This document shows positions 25,213-42,973 of a stretch of DNA of 64,000 bases, in pieces. The DNA comes from Chitinophagaceae bacterium. Its GTDB lineage: Bacteria > Bacteroidota > Bacteroidia > Chitinophagales > Chitinophagaceae. The position numbers and the translations under genes were made by a program. The notes beneath the pieces are model-generated. The model was not told the DNA's origin, did not search any database, and saw only the letters and a list, made by a program, of their open reading frames with translations. Where the stretch lies: the NCBI GenBank assembly GCA_019638595.1, contig JAHBTJ010000017.1, positions 1-64,000 on the forward strand. The letters run 5' to 3'. Positions within the stretch are counted from its first letter, which is position 1. Each line of letters opens with the position of its first letter.

Positions 25213-25908
25213 GTGAAACCAACGAAACAACATATACAAGACCATGCGCTGAAACTATATAATCAGAGCGGCTACGTGAACGTACGGCTGCAGCATATTG
25301 CAGACGCTGCTTTTGTGAGTGTCGGGCATCTTGCCTATCATTTCAAAACGAAGGACAATATAACTTCAGCCATTTATGATAACCTTGTTGTACAGCAGGA
25401 AAAACTGCTGAAGGAATTTTGGGTGGTTCCATTGTTTGAGGATGTTCAACGATATATAACAGCAGTATATGAAGTGCAGCAGCAGTATATTTTTTTTTAT
25501 CTTGATATGCTTGAAGTATTCAGGGCATATCCCGGCATAGAAGAAAAGCACAGGCATCATGTGGAGTGGAGACAAAAGCAGTTATTATATATGATGGATT
25601 TTAATATCTCGCGGGGCTCTTTTCAACCGGTTGAGGAGGAACAAAAAAAACTGTTGCTGAATCAATTAAGCGCACACCTGGATGCCTGGAGGTATATAGT
25701 AAAGATTCAGTTTTATACAGACGATTCGCTGGGTATGTTTTCTGCAGCTTTCTGGAACCTGCTGAAGCCCTGTTTCTCTGATATGGGTGAAAAGGAGTTT
25801 GAACAATTAAGCGCTTCGTTACAGCCGGTTTGCCCTCATGAAAAATTTGAAATGCCCACGCTTGCTTTTTCCTGGAAGAATTTATTACTTTTAGAAAAAA
25901 ATTTCTAA
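25213..25908 (+). CDS. TetR/AcrR-type transcriptional regulator (regulator 1 of the hydrogenase island)
   Basis: 231 residues from a GTG at 25213 (VKPTKQHIQDHALKLYNQSG). The frame is open further upstream but that part is antisense to the Fic remnant. The N-terminal helix-turn-helix reads VRLQHIADAAFVSVGHLAYHFKTKDNI, a TetR-type motif; the remainder is a helical ligand/dimer domain with no recognisable pocket. It is related to regulator 2 at 26268-26894 (IADAAxxSVGxLAYHFKxK). It heads a tight three-gene unit that runs toward the hydrogenase genes. The 18-bp palindrome overlaps its last codons and stop. Confidence 0.82.
   Translation: MKPTKQHIQDHALKLYNQSGYVNVRLQHIADAAFVSVGHLAYHFKTKDNITSAIYDNLVVQQEKLLKEFWVVPLFEDVQRYITAVYEVQQQYIFFYLDMLEVFRAYPGIEEKHRHHVEWRQKQLLYMMDFNISRGSFQPVEEEQKKLLLNQLSAHLDAWRYIVKIQFYTDDSLGMFSAAFWNLLKPCFSDMGEKEFEQLSASLQPVCPHEKFEMPTLAFSWKNLLLLEKNF
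25891..25908. promoter_or_regulatory. candidate TetR operator, copy 1
   Basis: TTAGAAAAAAATTTCTAA, an 18-bp site with 7-bp inverted arms (TTAGAAA/TTTCTAA) and a 4-bp centre. It covers the final codons and stop of regulator 1 and ends 6 bases before the start of the next gene. The same arms with the same spacing recur before the hydrogenase small subunit and before hypA. Confidence 0.6.
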
Positions 25909-25914
25909 GCTGTT

Positions 25915-26268
25915 ATGAGGGTTGAAATAGATGAGAATGCATACAGCAATATGCTCGAAGCGATGAATACATTGGTGTCAACGGATATTTCCGGTACCTC
26001 GTCAGATATATGTTTCATAAACGATGATTTCTGGCTTCAGGATACAGCGGTGATTGAAAATATTGAATACAGGAAAGGGCAGTATATGATATTTCTGGTA
26101 TTTGCCCATCACCTTAAACCGCTGAAATTTCTAAAACGGAAAATCGTTCAATATGCCTGCCCAAAAAAGGCCGCAATTGTAGCGCATTACATGCGAAGGC
26201 AGGCAGCTAAGGATCAGCGGGGAACATTAACAGTTAATTTAAAAATGATAAACATTGCATATAGCTGA
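25915..26268 (+). CDS. 117-residue protein of unknown function between two TetR-type regulators
   Basis: I do not recognise this protein. It begins MRVEIDENAYSNMLEAMN, is soluble, has an acidic N-terminal half and a basic C-terminal half (LKFLKRKIVQYACPKK, HYMRRQAAKDQ), and has no signal peptide or membrane segment. Its stop overlaps the start of regulator 2 (TGATG type), and it follows regulator 1 by 6 bases, so it is cotranscribed with both. Conservation beside hydrogenase genes would be the best clue; it may modify or anchor one of the regulators, which is a guess. Confidence 0.65.
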   Translation: MRVEIDENAYSNMLEAMNTLVSTDISGTSSDICFINDDFWLQDTAVIENIEYRKGQYMIFLVFAHHLKPLKFLKRKIVQYACPKKAAIVAHYMRRQAAKDQRGTLTVNLKMINIAYS

Positions 26269-26894
26269 TGTTATCCACCAAGGCAAAAATAATTGAAGAA
26301 TCAGAGCGATTGTTTTTTGAACAGGGAATTGCCGGTATACGACTGCAGAATATTGCGGATGCGGCGGGAATCAGTGTTGGCAACCTGGCATACCATTTCA
26401 AAAACAAAGAGGCGATTGTAGAAACTGTTTATGAAAATCTATTTTCAGAGCTGACCAATATTCTCTCGCAATATATGGTGTTTCCCGATCTATCGGGGTT
26501 TGATAAACAATTTTCGGCACTGTATAAGTTTTATGATGCCAAAGGTTTCACCTTCAACAACTGGTGGCATATAGAAAGGAGCTTTCCGGATATTCAGAAA
26601 GAGTGGCTTTCGCTGAACAACAAAGTATTACTTCAGTTAAAAAAGAGGATTGATTATAATCTTAATAACGGCATCTTTAAACCAGAACCATATAAGGGCG
26701 CCTATGAAGCGCTTTGTCAAAATCTGTTGCTTTCTATCAACACGTGGATTCCCCATCAGTTACTGCGGCGTAAACCCTCCACAGAATATTTGTATAAAAA
26801 AGCGCTCTGGGCTGTATTGTACCCCGCCTTTACCCAAAAAGGCGAAGAGCTGTTTGCGGTAAATATTGCTCCTGCACTGCACCTGGATCTATAA
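26268..26894 (+). CDS. TetR/AcrR-type transcriptional regulator (regulator 2 of the hydrogenase island)
   Basis: 208 residues: the N-terminal helix-turn-helix IRLQNIADAAGISVGNLAYHF is close to regulator 1, followed by a helical domain rich in aromatic residues (FTFNNWWHIERSF). The start overlaps the stop of the preceding 117-residue gene. It ends 105 bases before the hydrogenase small-subunit start, and the tripled half-site array sits in that gap. The pair of paralogous regulators and the shared palindromes suggest that one or both act directly at these operators, possibly as a heterodimer. Confidence 0.85.
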   Translation: MLSTKAKIIEESERLFFEQGIAGIRLQNIADAAGISVGNLAYHFKNKEAIVETVYENLFSELTNILSQYMVFPDLSGFDKQFSALYKFYDAKGFTFNNWWHIERSFPDIQKEWLSLNNKVLLQLKKRIDYNLNNGIFKPEPYKGAYEALCQNLLLSINTWIPHQLLRRKPSTEYLYKKALWAVLYPAFTQKGEELFAVNIAPALHLDL

Positions 26895-26910
26895 AAATTA
26901 ATTTGAAAAG

Positions 26911-26940
26911 TTTTTCTAAATTTAGAAAAATTTTTCTAAA
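26911..26940. promoter_or_regulatory. double palindromic operator upstream of the hydrogenase structural genes, copy 2
   Basis: Three alternating half-sites make two overlapping perfect 20-bp palindromes: TTTTTCTAAATTTAGAAAAA (26911-26930) and TTTAGAAAAATTTTTCTAAA (26921-26940). The second contains the 18-bp TTAGAAA-N4-TTTCTAA form shared with the other two copies. It lies 59 bases upstream of the small-subunit ATG. The right edge overlaps TAAATTCG (26937-26944), which is one base off the Bacteroidota TAnnTTTG promoter element, so binding there would block polymerase. Confidence 0.72.
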
Positions 26941-26999
26941 TTCGTTTTGTTGATGCGGAATCAACAATAAACCACTTCTATTTACTCAACCGATTGCAC

Positions 27000-27962
27000 A
27001 TGGCTAATGTACTTTGGCTCCAAGGTGGCGCCTGTAGCGGAAACACTATGTCTTTCCTCAATGCCACTGAACCTACGGTGGTTGAATTAGTTACAGATTT
27101 TGGCGTAAATATTTTATGGCACCCTTCTATAGGACTGGAAATTGGTGAACAGGTAACACACCTGCTGAAAGATATTATTGCCGGAAAAGTTCAGTTGGAT
27201 ATCCTCGTATATGAGGGATCAATTATTGAAGGCCCTCATGGAACGGGCACCATGAACTATTTCTGCGAAAGACCTATGAAAGACTGGGTAAAGGAACTTT
27301 CAAAAACTGCCGGATACGTAGTAGCAATAGGTGATTGTGCCACATGGGGCGGTATTCCGGCAGTTCCACCCAATCCCAGTGAATCAACCGGCATGCAGTT
27401 TCATAAAAAAGCAAAAGGAGGGTTCTTAGGTGCAGGGTATGTATCTAAAGGCGGCCTGCCTGTTATTAACATTCCCGGTTGTCCTGCGCATCCTGACTGG
27501 GTTACCCAAATTTTGGTAGCTATTTCTACCGGCCGCATTGGCGACGTATTGATTGATGAATTTCATCGCCCGAAAACATTCTTCACCGATTTTGTACAAA
27601 CAGGTTGTACCAATGTGGTAAACTTTGCTCAAAAGGTGAACGGAGGATTTGGGAAGCGAGGAAATGGTTGTTTATTTTATGAGGTGGGCTGCCGTGGACC
27701 AATGACCCGCGCCAGTTGTAACAGAATTTTATGGAACAGAACCTCCAGTAAAACCCGTGCGAACCATCCATGCCTGGGTTGTACAGAGCCGGGCTTCCCT
27801 CATAATGATCTCGCAAAGGGTTCTGTATTTAAAACCATGACGTACCTCGGCTTTGTACCAAGAGAAGCTCCGACTGGCGAATCCCAGCTTGGATACTTTT
27901 TTAAAGCCGGTATCGAAAAAATATGGCCGAAGAACAGCGCCATTACAGAAGGAAGCAAATAA
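27000..27962 (+). CDS. [NiFe] hydrogenase small subunit, high-affinity actinobacterial-type (group 1h/1l-like)
   Basis: 320 residues from the ATG at 27000 (MANVLWLQGGACSGN). There is no twin-arginine signal peptide and no C-terminal membrane anchor, so it is cytoplasmic or peripherally attached. It carries the electron-relay clusters. Proximal ligands: Cys12, Cys113 (GDCATWGG) and Cys161 (IPGCPAHP), but the fourth position of the usual CxxC is Asn15. Distal site: Cys203, Cys224 and Cys231, with Gln200 where standard enzymes have His. Medial site: Cys240, Cys258 and Cys261 (HPCLGCTEPGFP). These features, and the start GGACSGNTMSFLN, match the oxygen-tolerant high-affinity group rather than membrane-bound uptake enzymes. 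The exact subgroup needs a tree. Confidence 0.93.
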   Translation: MANVLWLQGGACSGNTMSFLNATEPTVVELVTDFGVNILWHPSIGLEIGEQVTHLLKDIIAGKVQLDILVYEGSIIEGPHGTGTMNYFCERPMKDWVKELSKTAGYVVAIGDCATWGGIPAVPPNPSESTGMQFHKKAKGGFLGAGYVSKGGLPVINIPGCPAHPDWVTQILVAISTGRIGDVLIDEFHRPKTFFTDFVQTGCTNVVNFAQKVNGGFGKRGNGCLFYEVGCRGPMTRASCNRILWNRTSSKTRANHPCLGCTEPGFPHNDLAKGSVFKTMTYLGFVPREAPTGESQLGYFFKAGIEKIWPKNSAITEGSK

Positions 27963-27992
27963 AATTTCATTCAACCATTTATCACATAAATT

Positions 27993-29591
27993 ATGGCAGT
28001 TGTAAAAGAATTAAATATATCCCCGGTAGGTCGCGTAGAAGGCGATCTTGATGTTAAAGTATATATGGAAAACGGCGTTGTAACCCGTGCGCATACACAG
28101 GCCGCTATGTTTAGGGGCTTTGAAAGAATTATGCAGGGAAAAGATCCCCAAAGCGGTTTAATTGTTACACCCCGTATATGCGGAATTTGCGGTGGCTCGC
28201 ATTTATATTCCGCCTCTTCAGCGCTTGATACCGCATGGGGTACAACCTTAACACCCAATGCGTTGCTGTTAAGAGCCATCGGGCAGTCCTGCGAAACCAT
28301 TCAGAGTATTCCCCGCTGGTTTTATGCTATTTTTGCTACGGATATGGCGAATAAAAAATTCGCCAATAAAAAATTATACGATGAGGTTGTAAAGAGATTT
28401 GCCGCTTACGTGGGCACTTCATTCCAGATTGGTGTTACAAACAGCGCCCTGCCTGTAGAAGTGTATGCATTGTTTGGAGGACAATGGCCGCACAGCAGTT
28501 ATATGGTGCCTGGCGGTGTAATGTGCGCACCTACTTTAAAGGATATTACCCGTGCGCACGCCATCATGAATAATTTTAAAAACCAATGGCTTGAAACGGT
28601 TTGGCTGGGTTGTTCGATTGACCGCTACCGTAAGGTTCAAAGCTGGGACGACCTGATGGAATGGGTTGACGAAAATGAAAGCCAGCGCAATAGTGACCTT
28701 GGATTGTTTATCAGGGCATCAATGGAATTTGGACTGGATAAGTTTGGACAGGGATGCGGAAACTATGTTGCATATGGCACATATCTGCATAAAGACAAAT
28801 ACAACAAGCCTACCATTGAAGGAAGAAACGATGCGCTGATAAGTCCTTCGGGGTTTTATAACAGCCATACAAAACAGTATCACGATTTTAACCACATGAA
28901 TATTAAAGAGCACGTATTGCATAGCTGGTACCAGGATCATGCTGCCGCTCACCCCTGGGATGAACCTATTCCAACGCCGGTTACTTCTCAAAACCTGGAA
29001 CACACAGACTTTAATAATAAATATAGCTGGAGTAAAGCTCCGCGTTACCTGGACAATTCATCTGAAGCTGGTCCTTTGTCAAGGTGTTTGATGTATACAA
29101 AGCCCAATAACCTGCCGCATCAAACCAAAGACCATTTGATAAAAAATGCATTTGATAAAATCGGCCCAAGCGTTTTTTTAAGAACACTGGCACGTGTACA
29201 CGAAGCTCCTATTTTATATGATAATATAGAGACCTGGTTGCGCCAGGTAGATCTGAATGGCGAGTTTTATATTAAACCCGAAGAAAAGGATGGGAAAGGC
29301 TTTGGCGCTACAGAAGCCGCACGCGGAGCATTAGCACACTGGATTGAAATAGAAAATGGTGTAATTAAGAACTACCAGGTAATGGCGCCAACCACATGGA
29401 ATGTTGGACCTAATGATGATGAGGGTAAATCTGGCCCGATTGAATCTGCCCTGGAAGGCATTGAAATAGAAGATGCTAATGATCCGGTAGAAGTAGGGCT
29501 GGTGGCACGCTCGTTCGATAGTTGTTTGGTTTGTACTGTACATGCGCATGATGCAAAAACAGGTAAGGAAATCACTACATTCAAATTATAG
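27993..29591 (+). CDS. [NiFe] hydrogenase large subunit, high-affinity actinobacterial-type (group 1h/1l-like)
   Basis: 532 residues holding the Ni-Fe(CN)2CO site. L1 motif RICGICGGSH is at 61-70 (Cys63, Cys66) and L2 motif DSCLVCTVH at 509-517 (Cys511, Cys514). A 15-residue tail after His517 is the expected substrate of the maturation protease encoded next. The wording of L1 and L2 (GGSHLY, SCLVCTVH) differs from classical group 1 (CGVC...DPCxxCxxH) and resembles the high-affinity enzymes that oxidise atmospheric H2. It starts 30 bases after the small subunit. The catalytic role is oxidation of H2 to protons and electrons. Confidence 0.95.
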   Translation: MAVVKELNISPVGRVEGDLDVKVYMENGVVTRAHTQAAMFRGFERIMQGKDPQSGLIVTPRICGICGGSHLYSASSALDTAWGTTLTPNALLLRAIGQSCETIQSIPRWFYAIFATDMANKKFANKKLYDEVVKRFAAYVGTSFQIGVTNSALPVEVYALFGGQWPHSSYMVPGGVMCAPTLKDITRAHAIMNNFKNQWLETVWLGCSIDRYRKVQSWDDLMEWVDENESQRNSDLGLFIRASMEFGLDKFGQGCGNYVAYGTYLHKDKYNKPTIEGRNDALISPSGFYNSHTKQYHDFNHMNIKEHVLHSWYQDHAAAHPWDEPIPTPVTSQNLEHTDFNNKYSWSKAPRYLDNSSEAGPLSRCLMYTKPNNLPHQTKDHLIKNAFDKIGPSVFLRTLARVHEAPILYDNIETWLRQVDLNGEFYIKPEEKDGKGFGATEAARGALAHWIEIENGVIKNYQVMAPTTWNVGPNDDEGKSGPIESALEGIEIEDANDPVEVGLVARSFDSCLVCTVHAHDAKTGKEITTFKL

Positions 29592-29623
29592 GTATCCATT
29601 GGCGTTCAACAAGATGTAATTGC

Positions 29624-29650
29624 AAGGCTATCCCGTGAAGGGTAGCCTTT
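29624..29650 (+). terminator. hairpin terminator after the hydrogenase structural genes
   Basis: AAGGCTA-T-CCC pairs with GGG-TAGCCTT around a GTGAA loop, with one bulged T, and is followed by TTTATCATT. It begins 32 bases after the large-subunit stop and would attenuate transcription into the maturation genes, giving more hySL transcript than accessory transcript. Confidence 0.6.
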
Positions 29651-29708
29651 ATCATTATGCTGCATTTAAAATTTTATGTAGAAAAATTATTGACAAACAT
29701 CCGGAAGA

Positions 29709-30200
29709 ATGAAAAATAAAATTGCCATAATGGGTTTTGGAAATCCCTGCAGAAGCGACGATGCTGTTGGCATTTATGTGATCGAAGAGCTAAAAAAGTC
29801 ATTTGGTGCTCAGGAGGATATCAGCTTTTTTGATATGGGTACCGGCGCATTTGAAGTGTTATATAAACTAAAGGGGCATCATAAAATTATTCTTGCCGAC
29901 GCTGTAATCAATACAGGCGAGCCGCCAGGTACAATATTCAGGCTACCGGCAGAAGAAGTAATGAAAGCGCCACAGGATGATCCGATGGTTTTCCTGCACA
30001 GCCTTAAATGGGACCAGGCATTGAGTTATGCAAAAAAAATATTAAGAGAGGAGTATCCGGATGATATAACGGTTTACCTGGTTGCTGTGGATGATACCAG
30101 CCTGGAAATACAATTAGGCGAAGCTGTAAAAAATGCCGGTAATAAAGTGGTAAACCATATAAAAAAAGATATTGCTGTATACTATGGTCAGCCTGTCTAA
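29709..30200 (+). CDS. [NiFe] hydrogenase maturation protease (HyaD/HupD family)
   Basis: 163 residues. The family pattern is clear: MGFGNPCRSDDAVG near the N-terminus with the nickel-sensing Asp, DMGTGAFEVLY, and LADAVINTGEPPGT with the second metal-site Asp; the third ligand is likely His99 or His100-region in FLHSLK. It cleaves the C-terminal peptide of the large subunit after nickel insertion. It is preceded by a terminator and an AT-rich segment that may hold its own promoter, and overlaps the next small gene by 17 bases. Confidence 0.92.
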   Translation: MKNKIAIMGFGNPCRSDDAVGIYVIEELKKSFGAQEDISFFDMGTGAFEVLYKLKGHHKIILADAVINTGEPPGTIFRLPAEEVMKAPQDDPMVFLHSLKWDQALSYAKKILREEYPDDITVYLVAVDDTSLEIQLGEAVKNAGNKVVNHIKKDIAVYYGQPV

Positions 30201-30495
30201 TGCACATATTATTATCAGTAGCGGGATAATAGCCCGGCTTTTTTCACAAACTGAGAGGGTATGTTGGGTATACTATCCTCAAAGAAAAAATTTAATGCTT
30301 GCACCATTTAATGATGAAGATTTTAAAGCATTACACAAAACAACCAACAGTGTTTTAAAATATAGAAACAACAAAGGCGACCGGAGCATGGATATACTGA
30401 GCATCATTTTAGATCACGATCTGGATGACAGCAGCAGGGAATTAGCATATGAGGTGAATGCAGTGATGAAGGTTTTAAACATACAATTATCCTGA
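30184..30495 (+). CDS. 104-residue protein of unknown function in the hydrogenase operon
   Basis: I do not recognise the family. The best start is the ATG at 30184, inside the end of the protease gene, giving MVSLSNAHIIISSG; a TTG 12 bases upstream is the only alternative in frame. The protein is soluble and helical in its second half (FKALHKTTNSVLKYRNN, DDSSRELAYEVNAVMKVL). It ends 8 bases before the TPR gene. Tight packing between protease and TPR protein argues for a function in hydrogenase assembly or electron delivery. Confidence 0.68.
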   Translation: MVSLSNAHIIISSGIIARLFSQTERVCWVYYPQRKNLMLAPFNDEDFKALHKTTNSVLKYRNNKGDRSMDILSIILDHDLDDSSRELAYEVNAVMKVLNIQLS

Positions 30496-30503
30496 AACAA
30501 AAC

Positions 30504-31985
30504 ATGATTACGATAAACATACCGGAACATATGCTGCCTCAAATCCGGGAAATCATCAGCAGCGAATTTCGCTTACATGAATTAGTACATATTACCACAC
30601 AACATGAGGAGCCGGATATAATCGTCACCGGTGAAGTAATTCATGTTACTCCTGACTGGAAGAACATGCAGCCACCGGTTTTGTTTTCAAGCAGCAGGTT
30701 TACAGCTCAAAATTTGTTAGGGCTCATATATGTTAAACTCAATAATTACGAAAAAGCATATCCCCTGCTGCAGGCAGAACCTGTTTTACTGAACCAGGCA
30801 GATATGATGAACCGCCTGCAAAACGGGCTTGATATATTGTTCCGGGATAATGATAAAGCTTATATACCGCTGCACAATAAAGCGGTTATTCATCACTATA
30901 CCTTATTCGAAATACCGAAACATATTGAGGAGCTCAAAGCTGAATATATTGCCGCAATTCAAAAAGCCCGTACACCGGAATTGGCCGCTTTTACAACCAA
31001 ACATTACGCACTGCTGCTAACAGATGCAGGACAACTGGAAGAGGCTGAAGAACTGCTTGAAAAACAGTTAAGGAAAACACTGCCCTTATGCGCAGCTATT
31101 GAAGTAAAACATACACTTTGTGTAATATGGCTGAAACAATTAGCCGTTCCTTATAATGAAACAAAACTTGAAAAACATAAACAGTATTTATGGGAATGCC
31201 TCGAATATTATGAATCACGCAACCGGGATGCAGAAGCAGCAATGGTATTGTCTGACGCGGCATATATAGCCAATATCAGCAATAGTTTCAGTGAAGCATT
31301 AGGCTATATTAACAGGGCTATAGCTTATTTTGAAAAAGAAGCGATTACAGAACTTTTGGGAGATGCCTTTATGAAAAAAGGAAATATTTTGCGGCGGTGG
31401 GCACAGCAAAATAATTCCCAGTTTTTTCAGCAGGCTGCAAAAACCTATCAGCAGGCATTAAAAATCTTTACAAGAGAAACAGCGCCCTGGCTGTTCGCAG
31501 ATATACATCATCAATTAGGCATTATCTATTCAGAAATACCGGATGAAGTAAAGAAAAAAAGTGTATGGGCTTCTGTATCGGTATCCTCGTTTAAAGAGGC
31601 GCTTGACTTTTATAACAAAGTAGATTTCCCATATGAATTTGCAGTGATCTGTAACAGCCAGGCCAATGCATTTACAAAATATCCCGGGGGACTGCACAGC
31701 GATAATTTTGAAAAAGCGCTTAACTGGTACCTTGAGGCACTGGATGTGCAAACCGCTGATAAATATCCATTGGAAAGAGCGCTGACCCTGTTAAACTACT
31801 TAGAAGCCAGTTGGTATGCAGGCAATACGTCTAGCTTTGATGAAGAACGTTTTACAGATATGTATGCTAAAGCCAATGAAGCCCTGGCGCTTGGCTGTAA
31901 TGAGTTTATTATACAATCCGCCAAAGAACATCTGGAAAAGTTAAAAGATATTCAACAGCAAAAAGCTGCTACGCTTCAAAATTAG
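30504..31985 (+). CDS. TPR-repeat protein of the hydrogenase operon
   Basis: 493 residues with an N-terminal region of about 70 residues (MITINIPEHMLPQIREIISS) and then TPR-like helical pairs over most of the length: NLLGLIYVKLNNYEKAYPLL, YALLLTDAGQLEEAEELLEK, ALGYINRAIAYFEKEAI and FQQAAKTYQQALKIF are good repeats. No signal peptide, so it is cytoplasmic. TPR proteins accompany high-affinity hydrogenase clusters in other phyla and may act as assembly scaffolds; the precise role is not known. Its stop lies inside the third palindromic operator. Confidence 0.82.
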   Translation: MITINIPEHMLPQIREIISSEFRLHELVHITTQHEEPDIIVTGEVIHVTPDWKNMQPPVLFSSSRFTAQNLLGLIYVKLNNYEKAYPLLQAEPVLLNQADMMNRLQNGLDILFRDNDKAYIPLHNKAVIHHYTLFEIPKHIEELKAEYIAAIQKARTPELAAFTTKHYALLLTDAGQLEEAEELLEKQLRKTLPLCAAIEVKHTLCVIWLKQLAVPYNETKLEKHKQYLWECLEYYESRNRDAEAAMVLSDAAYIANISNSFSEALGYINRAIAYFEKEAITELLGDAFMKKGNILRRWAQQNNSQFFQQAAKTYQQALKIFTRETAPWLFADIHHQLGIIYSEIPDEVKKKSVWASVSVSSFKEALDFYNKVDFPYEFAVICNSQANAFTKYPGGLHSDNFEKALNWYLEALDVQTADKYPLERALTLLNYLEASWYAGNTSSFDEERFTDMYAKANEALALGCNEFIIQSAKEHLEKLKDIQQQKAATLQN

Positions 31986-31999
31986 AAAATTTTTTCTAA
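31982..31999. promoter_or_regulatory. candidate TetR operator upstream of hypA, copy 3
   Basis: TTAGAAAATTTTTTCTAA, 18 bp with 8-bp inverted arms, 72 bases upstream of the hypA start. Directly to its right is TATATTTT (32001-32008), near the TAnnTTTG promoter element. This suggests that the hyp genes have a separate promoter under the same regulator as the structural genes. Confidence 0.68.
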
Positions 32000-32070: not shown

Positions 32071-32421
32071 ATGCACGAAATTTCACTGGTAAGAAATATT
32101 TTCAGCACGCTTGAACATGAATTTCCCGAACGGATGGACAAAGTACGCGGCATTTATCTTACAGTGGGTTTGCTAACCAATCTGCACCCCTTGTTAATGC
32201 AAAGCGCTTTTGATGCAGTACTACTTGATGAGCCCCGCTATAATAAAACCAGCTTACATGTAAAAGTATTGCCGATCAAAATAAAATGTGCTGCCTGTGG
32301 CGCTGAAACAGAAGTGCAGCAGTACAAATTTATTTGTGCGGAATGCAAAACACCCGGCAACCAGGTTATTCAGGGAGAAGAAATGCTGATCACACAGGTT
32401 GAATTTGAAGATACAGAATAA
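32071..32421 (+). CDS. hypA: hydrogenase nickel-insertion protein HypA
   Basis: 116 residues from the ATG at 32071; the frame opens 9 bases earlier, but the family invariably starts Met-His-Glu and His2 is a nickel ligand. The zinc site is CAACGAETEVQQYKFICAEC (about residues 73-92), two CxxC pairs. HypA delivers nickel to the large-subunit precursor with HypB. It is the first of the hyp operon, directly behind the third operator. Confidence 0.95.
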   Translation: MHEISLVRNIFSTLEHEFPERMDKVRGIYLTVGLLTNLHPLLMQSAFDAVLLDEPRYNKTSLHVKVLPIKIKCAACGAETEVQQYKFICAECKTPGNQVIQGEEMLITQVEFEDTE

Positions 32422-32459: not shown

Positions 32460-33173
32460 ATGAGTCAACCTAAAAGCAACAGGGCGCCGGTGGGATCTGT
32501 ACAATGTGAAAACACAACACTTAATCTTTTAAAAGCAAATGATTTTGTTGCAAAAGCCATTCGCGACCGGCTCGCGCCACACGATATTCTCGTGTTGAAT
32601 ATTTGTTCTTCGCCCGGTAGTGGCAAAACCACGCTGCTGCAGGAAACAGGCAGGCGTTTAAAAGATACATTAAAAATGGGCGTGCTGGTAGGCGATCCTG
32701 AAACAGAACGGGATGCCATACGCATACGCGAAGCCGGCATTGATTGTTTGCAGATTGTTACCGGTGGTATGTGTCATATAGAAGCACAGATGGTGTTGCA
32801 GGGGCTCGACCATTTCAATTACGAAGGGCTTGATGTTTTGTTTATTGAGAATGTTGGAAATCTTGTTTGTCCTGCCGCTTTTGATCTTGGAGAAGATTAC
32901 CGTGTTACTTTAATTTCAAGCACCGAGGGCGATGACAAGCCGAAAAAATATCCCCGGATGTTTTTAACAAGTGAGCTGATGCTGGTGAGTAAAGCGGATC
33001 TGTTGCCTTATGTTCCTTTTTCAGTTGAAGCCGTTACACAGGATGCAAAAGACATCAACCCGGATCTTGAAGTGATTGCGATAAGCAGTTTAAACGGAGC
33101 AGGTATGAATGAATGGTGTAAGTGGCTGGAACAAAAGGTAGCTGAAAAGAAAAAGGCCGGAATAGAAGCATAG
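32460..33173 (+). CDS. hypB: hydrogenase nickel-incorporation GTPase HypB
   Basis: 237 residues. P-loop SSPGSGKTT near residue 50, GDPETERDA switch region and GGMCHIEAQMV carrying the nickel/zinc-binding Cys-His of the G domain. The histidine-rich stretch and CxxCGC high-affinity nickel site found at the N-terminus of some HypB proteins are absent. It hydrolyses GTP to drive nickel transfer into the hydrogenase large subunit. It lies 38 bases after hypA. Confidence 0.95.
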   Translation: MSQPKSNRAPVGSVQCENTTLNLLKANDFVAKAIRDRLAPHDILVLNICSSPGSGKTTLLQETGRRLKDTLKMGVLVGDPETERDAIRIREAGIDCLQIVTGGMCHIEAQMVLQGLDHFNYEGLDVLFIENVGNLVCPAAFDLGEDYRVTLISSTEGDDKPKKYPRMFLTSELMLVSKADLLPYVPFSVEAVTQDAKDINPDLEVIAISSLNGAGMNEWCKWLEQKVAEKKKAGIEA

Positions 33174-37057: not shown

Positions 37058-37086
37058 AACAACAGGTTATTTTTTATAGGATCTTT

Positions 37087-39327
37087 ATGAAAACTACCGC
37101 TTTCATTTTTTGCTTTTTCATTTTATTACAACTGAATGCACAGCAACAACCAAAACTGATTTATTTACTTAATAAAGAAACAAAGTTGCCGGTTGCCGGT
37201 GCTTCTATCAGAAGTACCACAGGTAATTATACCCGTTTGTCCGGTGAATCGGGGATGGTGCTACTGAATAATTTCAATGGCGGTGAACTGGGAATAACCT
37301 GCATTGGCTATGCCAAAAAAGAAATAATGATGAACAACATAGCGGAAGACGGGAAAATTTTTCTTGATCCGGTTATAACTTCATTGCAGGAGGTAAAAAT
37401 ATCCGGAGGTGCACGCAGCGGCATATTTCATACCATCAGTGATCTTGATATTGATGTACGCCCTGTTGTAAATTCACAGGAAGTATTACGCATGGTACCG
37501 GGCTTGTTTATTGGTCAGCATGCCGGGGGAGGAAAAGCAGAACAGATTTTTTTAAGAGGTTTTGATATTGATCACGGAACGGACATTGCTATTTCAGTAG
37601 ATGGCATACCGGTAAATATGGTAAGTCACGCTCACGGTCAGGGCTATGCGGATCTTCATTTCCTTATTCCCGAAATGATAGAGAAAGTAGATTTCAATAA
37701 AGGGCCATACTTTTCCGATAAGGGAAACTTTGCCACTGCCGGTTACGTTGGCTTCAGAACAAAAGATCACCTGCAAAGTAACTTTGTTAAACTTGAAGCA
37801 GGACAGTTTAACACTTTCAGAGCCGTTACAGGTATTAATCTTTTAAACAAAACCTCCGGGCTGAATAAAAACCAAAGCCTGATTTTTGCAGGTGAAGCTT
37901 CTTATACAAAAGGGTATTTTGAAAGTCCGCAGAATTTTAAACGCTTTAACGGAATACTTAAATACCATACGCAAATTGGTAAACGTTCCTCCCTCACTTC
38001 TTATATTTCTGGATTTACCAGTGGCTGGAATGCCAGCGGGCAGATACCCGGTCGCGCTATTGCCTCCGGGTTAATTGGCTGGTATGGTGCGATAGATAAT
38101 ACAGAGGGCGGTAAAACCAGCAGGTATAATGTTAACAATACATTTACTACAAATTTTAATAACGGTATCAGGTGGAAGAACCAGTTGTATTATACAAAGT
38201 ACAGGTTTGAACTGTATTCCAACTTTACTTTCTTTTTAGAAAGCCCTGAAAAAGGAGACCAGATAAAGCAAAAAGAAAACCGTGATATACTTGGCTTTAC
38301 TTCGAATATTGAGAAAGACCACCAGTTAGGCTCATTCTCATCTTTATCCAGGGCGGGTATACAAACACGTTATGATAACGTAAAAGGAATTGAATTAAGC
38401 AATACCGAAAACAGGAAAACATTATTGAAATCTATAATGAAGGGAGATGTAAATGAATTTAACGGGGGCATCTTCGTGGAAGAAAGAGTTTCCCTGACAA
38501 ATAAACTGGACGTTACGGCAGGCATCCGGGGCGATTATTTTTCCAACCGCTACGCAGATCATCTCATGACTAAAACACTTTCAGGCAACTCGTTTATAGT
38601 AAGCCCCAAACTTAATATTGATTACAGTATCAACGATGCGATAAAACTATACTGGTATAACGGTCAGGGTATACACAGCAACGATACCCGTGTTGCGATA
38701 CAAAAAAACGGGCAGAACGGGGTTACCCCGGCATGGGGCACGGATATAGGCGGTGTGTTTAAATTAGGCAAAAAGGCTATGCTGCAGAGCGCCTTATGGT
38801 ATTTATGGCTGAAACAGGAGTTTGTGTATGTAGGCGATGCCGGAATTATTGAACCCAGTGGAAAAACGGGGAGAATAGGTATGGATGCATCACTCAGGTA
38901 CGAGATAGTCCGGTGGTTATATACCGATATTGATCTCAACTATACTTATGCACGCGCTATGGATGAGCCTAAAGGAGAGAACTATATTCCGCTTGCGCCG
39001 GTATTTACAAGCAGCGGTGGTTTTACCTACCGTAAATCAACAGGATGGAATGGCAGTATACGTTACCGCTATATGGACAGCCGGCCTGCCAATGAAGACA
39101 ACAGCGTAATAGCCAAAGGTTATTTTATCTGCGATGCCGCGATAAATTATACCCAAAAAAAATGGGAATCAGGTATTGCCATTCAGAATATTTTCAATAC
39201 CAAATGGAAAGAAACACAATTTGATACGGAAAGCCGCCTGTATAATGAACCTGCCCCTGTAAGCGAAATTCATTTTACGCCGGGCACACCTTTCTTTTTG
39301 CGGGCAGGTATTACACTGTTTTTTTAA
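37087..39327 (+). CDS. TonB-dependent outer-membrane receptor inside the hyp operon (candidate nickel uptake)
   Basis: 746 residues from the ATG at 37087, giving a clean signal peptide (cleavage near LNAQ). The N-terminal domain is carboxypeptidase-regulatory-like (LPVAGASIRSTTGN), followed by the plug (IFLRGFDIDHGTDIAISVDG) and a barrel ending in FF. The plug carries SHAHGQGYADLHF, three histidines close together that could contact a metal or metallophore. The gene sits between hypD and hypE with a nickel permease downstream, so a nickel-related substrate is likely but not shown. No SusD partner is present, which fits a metal rather than a glycan. Confidence 0.85.
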   Translation: MKTTAFIFCFFILLQLNAQQQPKLIYLLNKETKLPVAGASIRSTTGNYTRLSGESGMVLLNNFNGGELGITCIGYAKKEIMMNNIAEDGKIFLDPVITSLQEVKISGGARSGIFHTISDLDIDVRPVVNSQEVLRMVPGLFIGQHAGGGKAEQIFLRGFDIDHGTDIAISVDGIPVNMVSHAHGQGYADLHFLIPEMIEKVDFNKGPYFSDKGNFATAGYVGFRTKDHLQSNFVKLEAGQFNTFRAVTGINLLNKTSGLNKNQSLIFAGEASYTKGYFESPQNFKRFNGILKYHTQIGKRSSLTSYISGFTSGWNASGQIPGRAIASGLIGWYGAIDNTEGGKTSRYNVNNTFTTNFNNGIRWKNQLYYTKYRFELYSNFTFFLESPEKGDQIKQKENRDILGFTSNIEKDHQLGSFSSLSRAGIQTRYDNVKGIELSNTENRKTLLKSIMKGDVNEFNGGIFVEERVSLTNKLDVTAGIRGDYFSNRYADHLMTKTLSGNSFIVSPKLNIDYSINDAIKLYWYNGQGIHSNDTRVAIQKNGQNGVTPAWGTDIGGVFKLGKKAMLQSALWYLWLKQEFVYVGDAGIIEPSGKTGRIGMDASLRYEIVRWLYTDIDLNYTYARAMDEPKGENYIPLAPVFTSSGGFTYRKSTGWNGSIRYRYMDSRPANEDNSVIAKGYFICDAAINYTQKKWESGIAIQNIFNTKWKETQFDTESRLYNEPAPVSEIHFTPGTPFFLRAGITLFF

Positions 39328-42418: not shown

Positions 42419-42973
42419 ATGAAAAAAACAGAGGTGCAGATAATAGCGTTAAGCAACAGTGAAAGCTCGCCCGGCAACTTTTCTCTTGTGTTGGAGGAGG
42501 TTCATGGCAAGAGAAGAGTAGTGCTTATTATTGGTCCCTTCGAAGCACAATCCATTGCCATACATCTTGAGCGTATGCAGTTATTACGTCCCATAACGCA
42601 TGATCTGTTTAAAAATACTATTGTAGCTCTTGGCGGCCAGTTAAAAGAAGTATTCATTCATACAGTAGAAGAAGGTATTTTTCACGCTTCAATGATAATA
42701 CTTCAGAATGGAGAAGAAAGAATAATTGATGCAAGAGTAAGTGATGCCTTGTCACTGGCAATCAGGTTTAACAGTCCTGTTTTTATTACAGAAGGGCTGT
42801 TGAATCAATTGAATATTCAGCCTCCGGCAGATAAGTTTCAGATGCTGAGAGGTTCACTGGCCGAATACTCTCTTGACGAACTGGAAGCATTATTACAGGA
42901 TGTTCTTTCCAAAGAAGATTATGAGAGCGCCCGAAGAATAAGGGATATGATAGCAAGGAGAAAAGAAAAATAA
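42419..42973 (+). CDS. bifunctional nuclease-like protein (DUF151) with C-terminal UVR motif
   Basis: 184 residues. Residues 1-135 are a DUF151/BFN domain: RRVVLIIGPFEAQSIAIHLE, ITHDLFKNTIVALGG and IDARVSDALSLAIRFNSPVFI. The last 40 residues, LEALLQDVLSKEDYESARRIRDMIARR, form a UvrB/UvrC-type helical hairpin. This pairing is widespread in Bacteroidota as a housekeeping gene. Here it sits at the end of the hydrogenase operon with a 4-base gap. Whether it is part of the system or simply the first chromosomal gene past the island is unclear. Confidence 0.85.
   Translation: MKKTEVQIIALSNSESSPGNFSLVLEEVHGKRRVVLIIGPFEAQSIAIHLERMQLLRPITHDLFKNTIVALGGQLKEVFIHTVEEGIFHASMIILQNGEERIIDARVSDALSLAIRFNSPVFITEGLLNQLNIQPPADKFQMLRGSLAEYSLDELEALLQDVLSKEDYESARRIRDMIARRKEK

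What the first reader, a model, noticed from the sequence alone, without database searches (positions are those of the whole stretch)
25891..31999. Shared 18-bp palindrome TTAGAAA-N4-TTTCTAA marks a hydrogenase regulon
The same arms with identical spacing occur at 25891-25908, 26922-26939 (inside a double palindrome at 26911-26940) and 31982-31999. The three sites lie inside the regulator gene cluster, before the hydrogenase structural genes and before hypA. Two paralogous TetR-type regulators are encoded beside them. Two sites adjoin near-matches to the Bacteroidota TAnnTTTG element. This looks like a dedicated operator and regulator pair for H2 metabolism that I do not recognise from described systems.
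Basis: partly seen in the sequence, partly recalled or inferred. Interest (0 to 1): 0.75.

Follow-up and report, generated by a model that had tools for sequence, protein, structure and literature searches.

The report
Dedicated operator for hydrogen-scavenging genes
A short symmetric DNA sign next to hydrogen-oxidising genes in a Bacteroidota genome recurs at the same genes in many relatives that keep a TetR-type regulator and is missing where that regulator is missing, so it is very probably that regulator's docking site and a switch for scavenging hydrogen.

Summary
TTAGAAA-N4-TTTCTAA occurs exactly three times in the 7.06 Mb genome, all at the reported places; a one-mismatch copy (26902-26919) forms a tandem with 26922-26939. 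The hydrogenase is Huc-like. Of 76 orthologous loci with at least 1.5 kb upstream, 62 of 62 with a TetR gene have a site before hydS (52 exact, 10 with one mismatch); 13 of 14 without lack it, and the exception has its TetR elsewhere on the contig. Of 40 relatives' genomes searched, 13 without this TetR have no exact site; 27 with it have 59: 54 at hyd/hyp clusters, 3 before a TonB receptor, 2 apparently unrelated. Both TetR paralogues have a similar recognition helix, nearly invariant in TetR2. Distance to the -7 box differs by gene: 14-16 bp at hydS, 37-39 at hypA, overlapping at orf117-tetR2. I read this as a dedicated TetR operator, probably activating hyd and hyp and repressing its own gene; pure repression is the main rival. 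Binding, sign and ligand are untested. TetR regulons are a known kind; my searches found no direct regulator of Huc-type hydrogenase.

The parts
25213..25908 (+). tetR1: TetR-type regulator, 231 aa, TetR_N plus PF13972
   Evidence: Pfam, both over cut-off; orthologues beside hydS in relatives
25891..25908 (.). operator copy 1, exact; overlaps the end and stop codon of tetR1, 6 bases before orf117; no TAnnTTTG at the position seen in relatives
25915..26268 (+). orf117: small conserved protein of unknown family
   Evidence: no Pfam or NCBIfam match; alignment of 39; no convincing PDB match by profile or fold
26268..26894 (+). tetR2: TetR-type regulator, 208 aa, recognition helix ISVGNLAYHF nearly invariant among orthologues
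   Evidence: PF00440 over cut-off, PF13972 just under; model pLDDT 94
26902..26919 (.). operator copy 2 (distal of the hydS pair), one mismatch
26922..26939 (.). operator copy 3 (proximal of the hydS pair), exact
27003..27962 (+). hydrogenase small subunit, Huc-like
   Evidence: PF01058 and PF14720; best PDB match 'Hydrogenase-2, small subunit' 7UUR, 449 bits, next kind 117
27993..29591 (+). hydrogenase large subunit, Huc-like
   Evidence: PF00374; best PDB match 'Hydrogenase-2, large subunit' 7UUS, 658 bits, next kind 207
29709..30200 (+). hydrogenase maturation protease
   Evidence: TIGR00072 over cut-off
30504..31985 (+). TPR protein of the cluster
31982..31999 (.). operator copy 4, exact, before hypA; followed 38 bases on by TACATTTA (-7 box with one mismatch)
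32071..32421 (+). hypA-like gene, first of the hyp genes
   Evidence: TIGR00100, E 3e-16 but under its curated cut-off
32460..33173 (+). hypB (name by reading the sequence, no family search)
   Evidence: ORF; used as query
37084..39327 (+). TonB-dependent receptor inside the hyp cluster; unlinked relatives carry the operator in three other genomes
   Evidence: PF07715
40420..41502 (+). NHL-repeat protein of the cluster
   Evidence: PF01436
41506..42186 (+). NicO-type nickel transporter
   Evidence: PF03824, just over cut-off

Best explanation
The 18-bp palindrome, refined to TTAGAAA-(mostly A/T)4-TTTCTAA, is the operator of a dedicated TetR-type regulator encoded beside it (TetR2, TetR1 or both, whose recognition helices are alike). 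It controls one regulon: the Huc-like [NiFe]-hydrogenase genes, the hyp maturation genes, in a few genomes a TonB receptor, and the regulator's own gene. Shown here by comparison: rarity elsewhere, presence at orthologous promoters, co-occurrence with the TetR gene, and gene-specific fixed spacing to the Bacteroidota -7 box. Inferred: binding by TetR, and the sign. If the -7 box starts near -11, operator centres are about -36 and -59 at hyd, about -58 at hyp and about -18 at the regulator gene, which fits activation of hyd and hyp and autorepression best. Likelihood: dedicated TetR operator about 0.92; activation of hyd/hyp given that, about 0.6.
For: Three exact sites in 7.06 Mb, all here. 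62 of 62 loci with TetR have a site before hydS (52 exact, 10 with one mismatch), 1 of 14 without; Fisher p = 9e-14, not corrected for kinship. The one exception has a TetR with RLQ..ISVGN.AYHF about 16 kb off on the same contig. Whole genomes: 27 with this TetR have 59 exact sites, 13 without have none. Of the 59, 49 fall in the fetched hydrogenase loci by coordinates, 4 in neighbouring hyp clusters and 3 before a TonB receptor, 1 before hypB by coordinates only, 2 look unrelated. -7 box offsets: hydS proximal 14-16 bp in 23 of 47 rows (300 shuffles: at most 4); hydS distal 38-40 in 14 of 33 (at most 3; not independent of the proximal site); hypA 37-39 in 6 of 16 exact and 13 of 16 with one mismatch (at most 2 and 8); hypB 36-38 in 7 of 14 with one mismatch (at most 4); orf117 overlapping in 7 of 17 exact (at most 2), against 1 of 46 and 0 of 29 for the same overlap at the hydS sites. 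Recognition helix identity 75% between TetR1 and TetR2 groups against 22% for the rest of the protein.
Against: No binding or expression data. The loci are related: on the hydS tree the TetR label changes 7 times and the site label 6 times, and only 4 independent pairs rest on well-supported branches (3 agree, 0 disagree, 1 no difference), too few for significance. The arm conservation is partly by construction, since rows were picked by the pattern. In this window the hydS and orf117 sites lack TAnnTTTG at the usual position; only hypA has it, with one mismatch; 24 of 47 hydS rows also lack it; hypB shows no peak of exact boxes. With one mismatch allowed, the overlapping box is also seen at hydS sites (10 of 47 and 12 of 33), so only exact boxes separate that class. 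The TonB receptor has a site in 3 of 18 TetR-bearing genomes with a receptor match. TetR1 helices vary more (70% identical among themselves). One genome (G345) has a TetR1-like gene part but no hydS match and no exact site. TetR proteins are mostly repressors (recalled).
Confidence: 0.85

Rival explanations
1. Same operator and regulator, but a pure repressor: TetR blocks RNA polymerase at hyd, hyp and its own promoter and leaves on binding a starvation- or redox-related ligand.
For: Usual TetR behaviour (recalled). The hydS proximal site covers the expected -33 position and the orf117 site overlaps the -7 box, both blocking positions.
Against: At hypA, the distal hydS site and part of the hypB sites the operator ends 36-40 bp before the -7 box and leaves the core promoter free; repression from there would need looping or cooperation.
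Confidence: 0.33
2. The site is bound by another conserved regulator and the TetR genes are only linked passengers.
For: No binding data; 7-4-7 symmetry is also used by other families such as Rex (recalled).
Against: No exact site anywhere in 13 of 13 genomes without this TetR; the locus with sites but no local TetR has one farther along the contig; sites precede orf117 or a tetR gene in 20 of 61 cases away from hydS.
Confidence: 0.06
3. The palindromes are RNA hairpins: weak terminators or mRNA processing signals after stop codons.
For: In the window the sites lie across or within about 30 bases after a stop codon. The tandem pair folds strongly as RNA in three examples (z -4.9 to -7.8), as two neighbouring palindromes must.
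Against: The two single sites of the window fold weakly (-4.6 and -3.7 kcal/mol, z 0.2 and -1.6). The gene-specific distance to the downstream -7 box and the dependence on TetR are not expected of terminators.
Confidence: 0.03
4. Chance AT-rich palindromes.
For: The pattern at 2-3 mismatches is not enriched.
Against: All 3 exact sites of the genome are here; a site stands before hydS in 62 of 62 TetR-bearing loci against 1 of 14 others.
Confidence: 0.01

Closest known systems
TetR-family regulators with palindromic operators; nearest solved structures 3NNR (Maqu_3571) and 3RH2 (Sama_0099), titled only as TetR-type regulators
   Same: HTH plus all-helical body, predicted fold TM-score 0.80 to 3NNR; operator at own gene and neighbouring operon
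   Different: Target is a hydrogenase and maturation regulon; operator position differs by promoter class; no ligand known
Huc regulation in Mycobacterium smegmatis by GylR (PMC13098282, passages read)
   Same: Same kind of hydrogenase; the question of what switches it
   Different: GylR, Crp1 and Crp2 did not bind the huc promoter there and direct regulators are called unidentified; another phylum
H2-sensing multicomponent regulation in Alcaligenes/Ralstonia eutropha (Lenz and Friedrich 1998, seen only as a reference entry; details recalled)
   Same: Dedicated regulation of an uptake hydrogenase
   Different: Two-component/NtrC type, not TetR (recalled); no such genes were looked for here
NikR nickel regulon (PMC5385501, search listing only)
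   Same: Nickel uptake and nickel enzymes under one regulator
   Different: Another protein fold and operator (recalled)

Membership tests
TetR family regulator | TetR_N helix-turn-helix at the N terminus | tested here: met
   Both proteins over the Pfam cut-off for PF00440
TetR family regulator | All-helical ligand/dimer domain of TetR fold | tested here: met
   TetR2 model, pLDDT 94; 255 PDB matches at E<=0.001; the 50 rows shown are transcriptional regulators, TetR-type where the title says. TetR1 was not modelled
TetR family regulator | Binds a palindromic operator near its own gene | tested here: inconclusive
   Palindrome present and co-occurring; binding not measured
TetR family regulator | A ligand changes DNA binding | not testable with these tools
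   No ligand assay
Group 2a (Huc-type) [NiFe]-hydrogenase | Nearest to Huc among enzymes of solved structure | tested here: met
   Large subunit 658 bits to 7UUS/7UTD against 207 for the next; small 449 against 117. The table calls these 'Hydrogenase-2'; that they are M. smegmatis Huc is recalled
Group 2a (Huc-type) [NiFe]-hydrogenase | Clade placement by HydDB or a reference tree | not tested
   No reference set at hand. PMC7784904 (passages) lists Bacteroidota and names Runella among carriers of group 2a; Runella loci are among my orthologues
Group 2a (Huc-type) [NiFe]-hydrogenase | NHL-repeat protein and maturation genes nearby | tested here: met
   association reported in PMC7784904
Group 2a (Huc-type) [NiFe]-hydrogenase | Oxidises atmospheric H2 | not testable with these tools
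   No activity assay

The most novel reading that the evidence does not exclude
A TetR-type protein that is the direct, dedicated activator of Huc-type hydrogen scavenging across much of the Bacteroidota, binding one operator whose position encodes the outcome: activation from about -36 and -59 at the hydrogenase and hyp promoters, repression from about -18 at its own gene, with paralogous TetR1 and TetR2 reading the same DNA word so that they can compete or form heterodimers.
Probability: 0.45. Interest if true: 0.72.

Novelty: new member of a known kind. Interest (0 to 1): 0.62.

Why it matters
Bacteria that oxidise atmospheric H2 are a major sink of that gas (recalled), yet the direct transcription factors of huc in mycobacteria are stated to be unidentified (PMC13098282, passages). 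Here is a candidate regulator, its exact 18-bp operator and its gene set in another phylum, present in named strains of Runella, Spirosoma, Emticicia, Dyadobacter and Cecembia. It can be tested with gel shifts and one deletion, and it predicts from sequence which genomes regulate hydrogen scavenging this way.

Tried and rejected
Group 1l was my first label for the hydrogenase, from memory; the comparison with solved structures put Huc (group 2a) nearest, so I dropped it. orf117 as the sensor partner: relatives of it also occur in loci without TetR, so it is not tied to the regulator; PDB searches by profile and by fold gave nothing convincing. TonB receptor as a general member of the regulon: site upstream in 3 of 18 TetR-bearing genomes with a receptor match and in 0 of 6 without TetR. 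The other one-mismatch site of the genome (C51) lies inside the end of an ORF and was set aside as chance. Terminators: see rivals. Comparing promoters with TetR-less loci: 12 of 13 had no exact TAnnTTTG within 250 bp of hydS, so nothing could be compared.

Rows dropped before counts. One search returned the best 80 of 300 related loci; more distant ones were not seen. In one search, four of 80 loci (L036, L057, L086, L099) had under 1.5 kb upstream and are outside the 76; with at least 300 bp the table is 63 with both, 15 with neither, 1 with a site only (79 loci). One search used 65 rows, 53 after dropping those 80% or more identical. One search used sites within 200 bp of hydS (leaving out L101 and L102, whose sites are about 250 bp off), dropped rows 75% or more identical and rows with N, and took sites of up to two mismatches for the distal hydS, orf117, hypA and hypB classes; its shuffles keep base content only. 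One search left out TetR proteins under 191 aa (L024, split in that assembly). One search covered 40 genomes of my choice: those of 26 of the TetR-bearing loci, of L094, and of 13 loci without TetR. In one search (17 genomes) two of the genomes counted as TetR-less gave weaker TetR matches with other recognition helices.
Full report
What is there. The palindrome TTAGAAA-N4-TTTCTAA is exactly at the three reported places, and a fourth copy with one mismatch (26902-26919) stands 20 bp before the one at 26922. In the whole genome of 7.06 Mb these three are the only exact sites. Exact sites are rare in relatives: 11 of 194 other genomes of the family have one each, and 17 of 293 phylum genomes without the hydS-TetR2 pair have 19 in all. 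Looser matches (two or three mismatches) are not enriched.

The neighbourhood. The order is tetR1, a small ORF (orf117), tetR2, tandem site, hydrogenase small and large subunit, maturation protease, TPR protein, site, a hypA-like gene and further hyp genes (hypB, F, C, D, E named by reading), with a TonB receptor, an NHL-repeat protein and a NicO nickel transporter farther down. Both TetR proteins carry PF00440; they are 28% identical. Against solved structures the hydrogenase is far nearer to 'Hydrogenase-2' 7UUS/7UTD/7UUR (recalled as Huc of M. smegmatis) than to anything else (large subunit 658 bits against 207; small 449 against 117), so I call it Huc-like, group 2a by inference. PMC7784904 (passages read) reports Bacteroidota among carriers of group 2a, names Runella, and lists NHL-repeat proteins and maturation factors as neighbours.

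Orthologous loci. One search fetched the best 80 of 300 related loci. Of 76 with at least 1.5 kb upstream of hydS, 62 have a TetR gene and all 62 have a site within 400 bp upstream of hydS (52 an exact one, 10 only with one mismatch); 14 have no TetR at the locus and 13 of these have no site. The exception, L094, belongs to a genome whose contig carries a TetR with the same recognition helix about 16 kb away, with an orf117 relative beside it and a further site before a hypE-like gene. Two other TetR-less genomes gave weaker TetR matches with different helices (ISYGNLCYHF, ISQGNLNYHF). Of the 62 loci, 17 have one TetR only (14 TetR2-like, 3 TetR1-like), so one at the locus seems enough; a second copy elsewhere was not looked for in those.

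Whole genomes of relatives. I searched 40 of the genomes behind the loci. The 13 without this TetR have no exact site at all. The 27 with it have 59: 49 within the fetched hydrogenase loci by coordinates, 4 in hyp clusters nearby on the contig and 3 directly before a TonB receptor homologous to the one inside the window's hyp cluster, 1 before hypB judged by coordinates alone, and 2 that look unrelated (before a gltX-like gene; inside an ORF). In the phylum sample hydS was found in 5 of 296 genomes; the three that also have TetR2 carry 3, 2 and 3 sites at the locus, the two without have none. One more genome, G345, has a TetR1-like gene part but neither hydS nor an exact site. Within the 80 loci, 61 sites lie away from hydS: 20 before hypB, 15 before orf117, 13 before hypA, 5 before a tetR gene, 1 each before the protease and TPR genes, 6 unassigned.

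Kinship caution. The loci are not independent. On a hydS tree of 77 rows the TetR label changes 7 times and the site label 6 times. Only 4 independent pairs lie on well-supported branches: 3 agree, 0 disagree, 1 does not differ. That is too few for a significant sign test. The base profile (arms 0.9-2.9 bits, flanks mostly under 0.4) is partly by construction, because rows were picked by the pattern; I lean on the presence counts and on the absence of sites from whole TetR-less genomes.

The regulator. The recognition helix (residues 35-44 of TetR2) is 93% identical among TetR2 proteins, 70% among TetR1 proteins and 75% between the groups, while the rest of the protein is 38%, 37% and 22% identical; against the 11 other TetR proteins of this genome the helix is 25-27% identical. 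The TetR2 model is confident (pLDDT 94) and matches TetR structures, best 3NNR. The centre of the palindrome is A/T only in 84 of 104 exact sites at the loci, against 10 of 30 background sites.

Promoter geometry. Measured from the operator's end, the box lies 14-16 bp downstream at the proximal hydS site (23 of 47 rows; 300 shuffles gave at most 4), 38-40 at the distal hydS site (14 of 33; at most 3; the same boxes, so not independent), 37-39 at hypA (6 of 16 exact, 13 of 16 with one mismatch; at most 2 and 8), 36-38 at hypB (7 of 14 with one mismatch, at most 4; no peak of exact boxes), and overlaps the operator's end at orf117 (7 of 17 exact; at most 2). Exact overlapping boxes are seen in 1 of 46 proximal and 0 of 29 distal hydS sites; with one mismatch the overlap is common there too (10 of 47, 12 of 33). 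If the box starts near -11, the operator centres are about -36, -59, -58, -57 and -18. The first four are positions from which activators can work, the last is a blocking position. Hence the model: activation of hyd and hyp, autorepression. The proximal hydS site also covers the expected -33 position, so repression there is not excluded. The window itself shows the box only at hypA (one mismatch, 38 bp); its hydS and orf117 sites do not, and its orf117 site lies inside what looks like one operon.

Rivals and literature. The two single sites of the window fold poorly as RNA, the tandem strongly because it is two palindromes, and nothing else speaks for terminators. In the rows listed by my searches of the paper library (several hold more papers than were listed) I saw no description of a TetR regulator or of this palindrome for Huc-type hydrogenase; most papers of subscription journals are not held. 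PMC13098282 (passages) states that the direct regulators of huc in mycobacteria are unidentified.

Verdict. A dedicated TetR operator and regulon for Huc-like hydrogen oxidation in Bacteroidota: well supported by comparison, not yet by experiment. A TetR regulon is a known kind of system; this is a new member with an important target, and its position-dependent operator use is worth testing.

Noticed in passing
25915-26268: orf117 belongs to a conserved, unannotated small-protein family (motifs WL.DTAVIE and AAKDQRGTL) with a relative in 74 of 80 loci; in 22 loci a shorter relative stands near the TPR gene, also in some without TetR. Its model (pLDDT 83) has no PDB match at E<=0.001.
   Followed up: partly
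37084-39327; L138, L139, L140: A TonB-dependent receptor with the motif IGQHAGGGKAEQIFLRGFDIDHGTDI lies inside the hyp cluster here and elsewhere in the genome in relatives; a HupE/UreJ-like protein (by reading) is next to one of them. Possibly nickel uptake.
   Followed up: partly
L133 (G345:C1:127429-127905): In a genome without a hydS match a TetR1-like N-terminal part runs in frame into what looks like the C-terminal end of the bifunctional-nuclease protein that stands at the end of the cluster in the window (42419-42973): possibly a scar of a lost hydrogenase cluster.
   Followed up: no
L129 and L130 (G228:C14): Two hydrogenase small-subunit matches in tandem in one relative (81% and 66% identical to the window's).
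   Followed up: no
L093:8867-9877 and L093:16906-17890: In L093 a tetR1-like gene and a tetR2-like gene, each next to an orf117 copy, lie about 8 kb apart, and the best large-subunit match lies beyond the second.
   Followed up: no
upstream of hydS in L023-L027, L042 and window 26980-27002: A conserved CGATTG stretch just before the hydS start codon in these loci close to the window's, where the TAnnTTTG arrangement of other loci is not seen (by reading).
   Followed up: no
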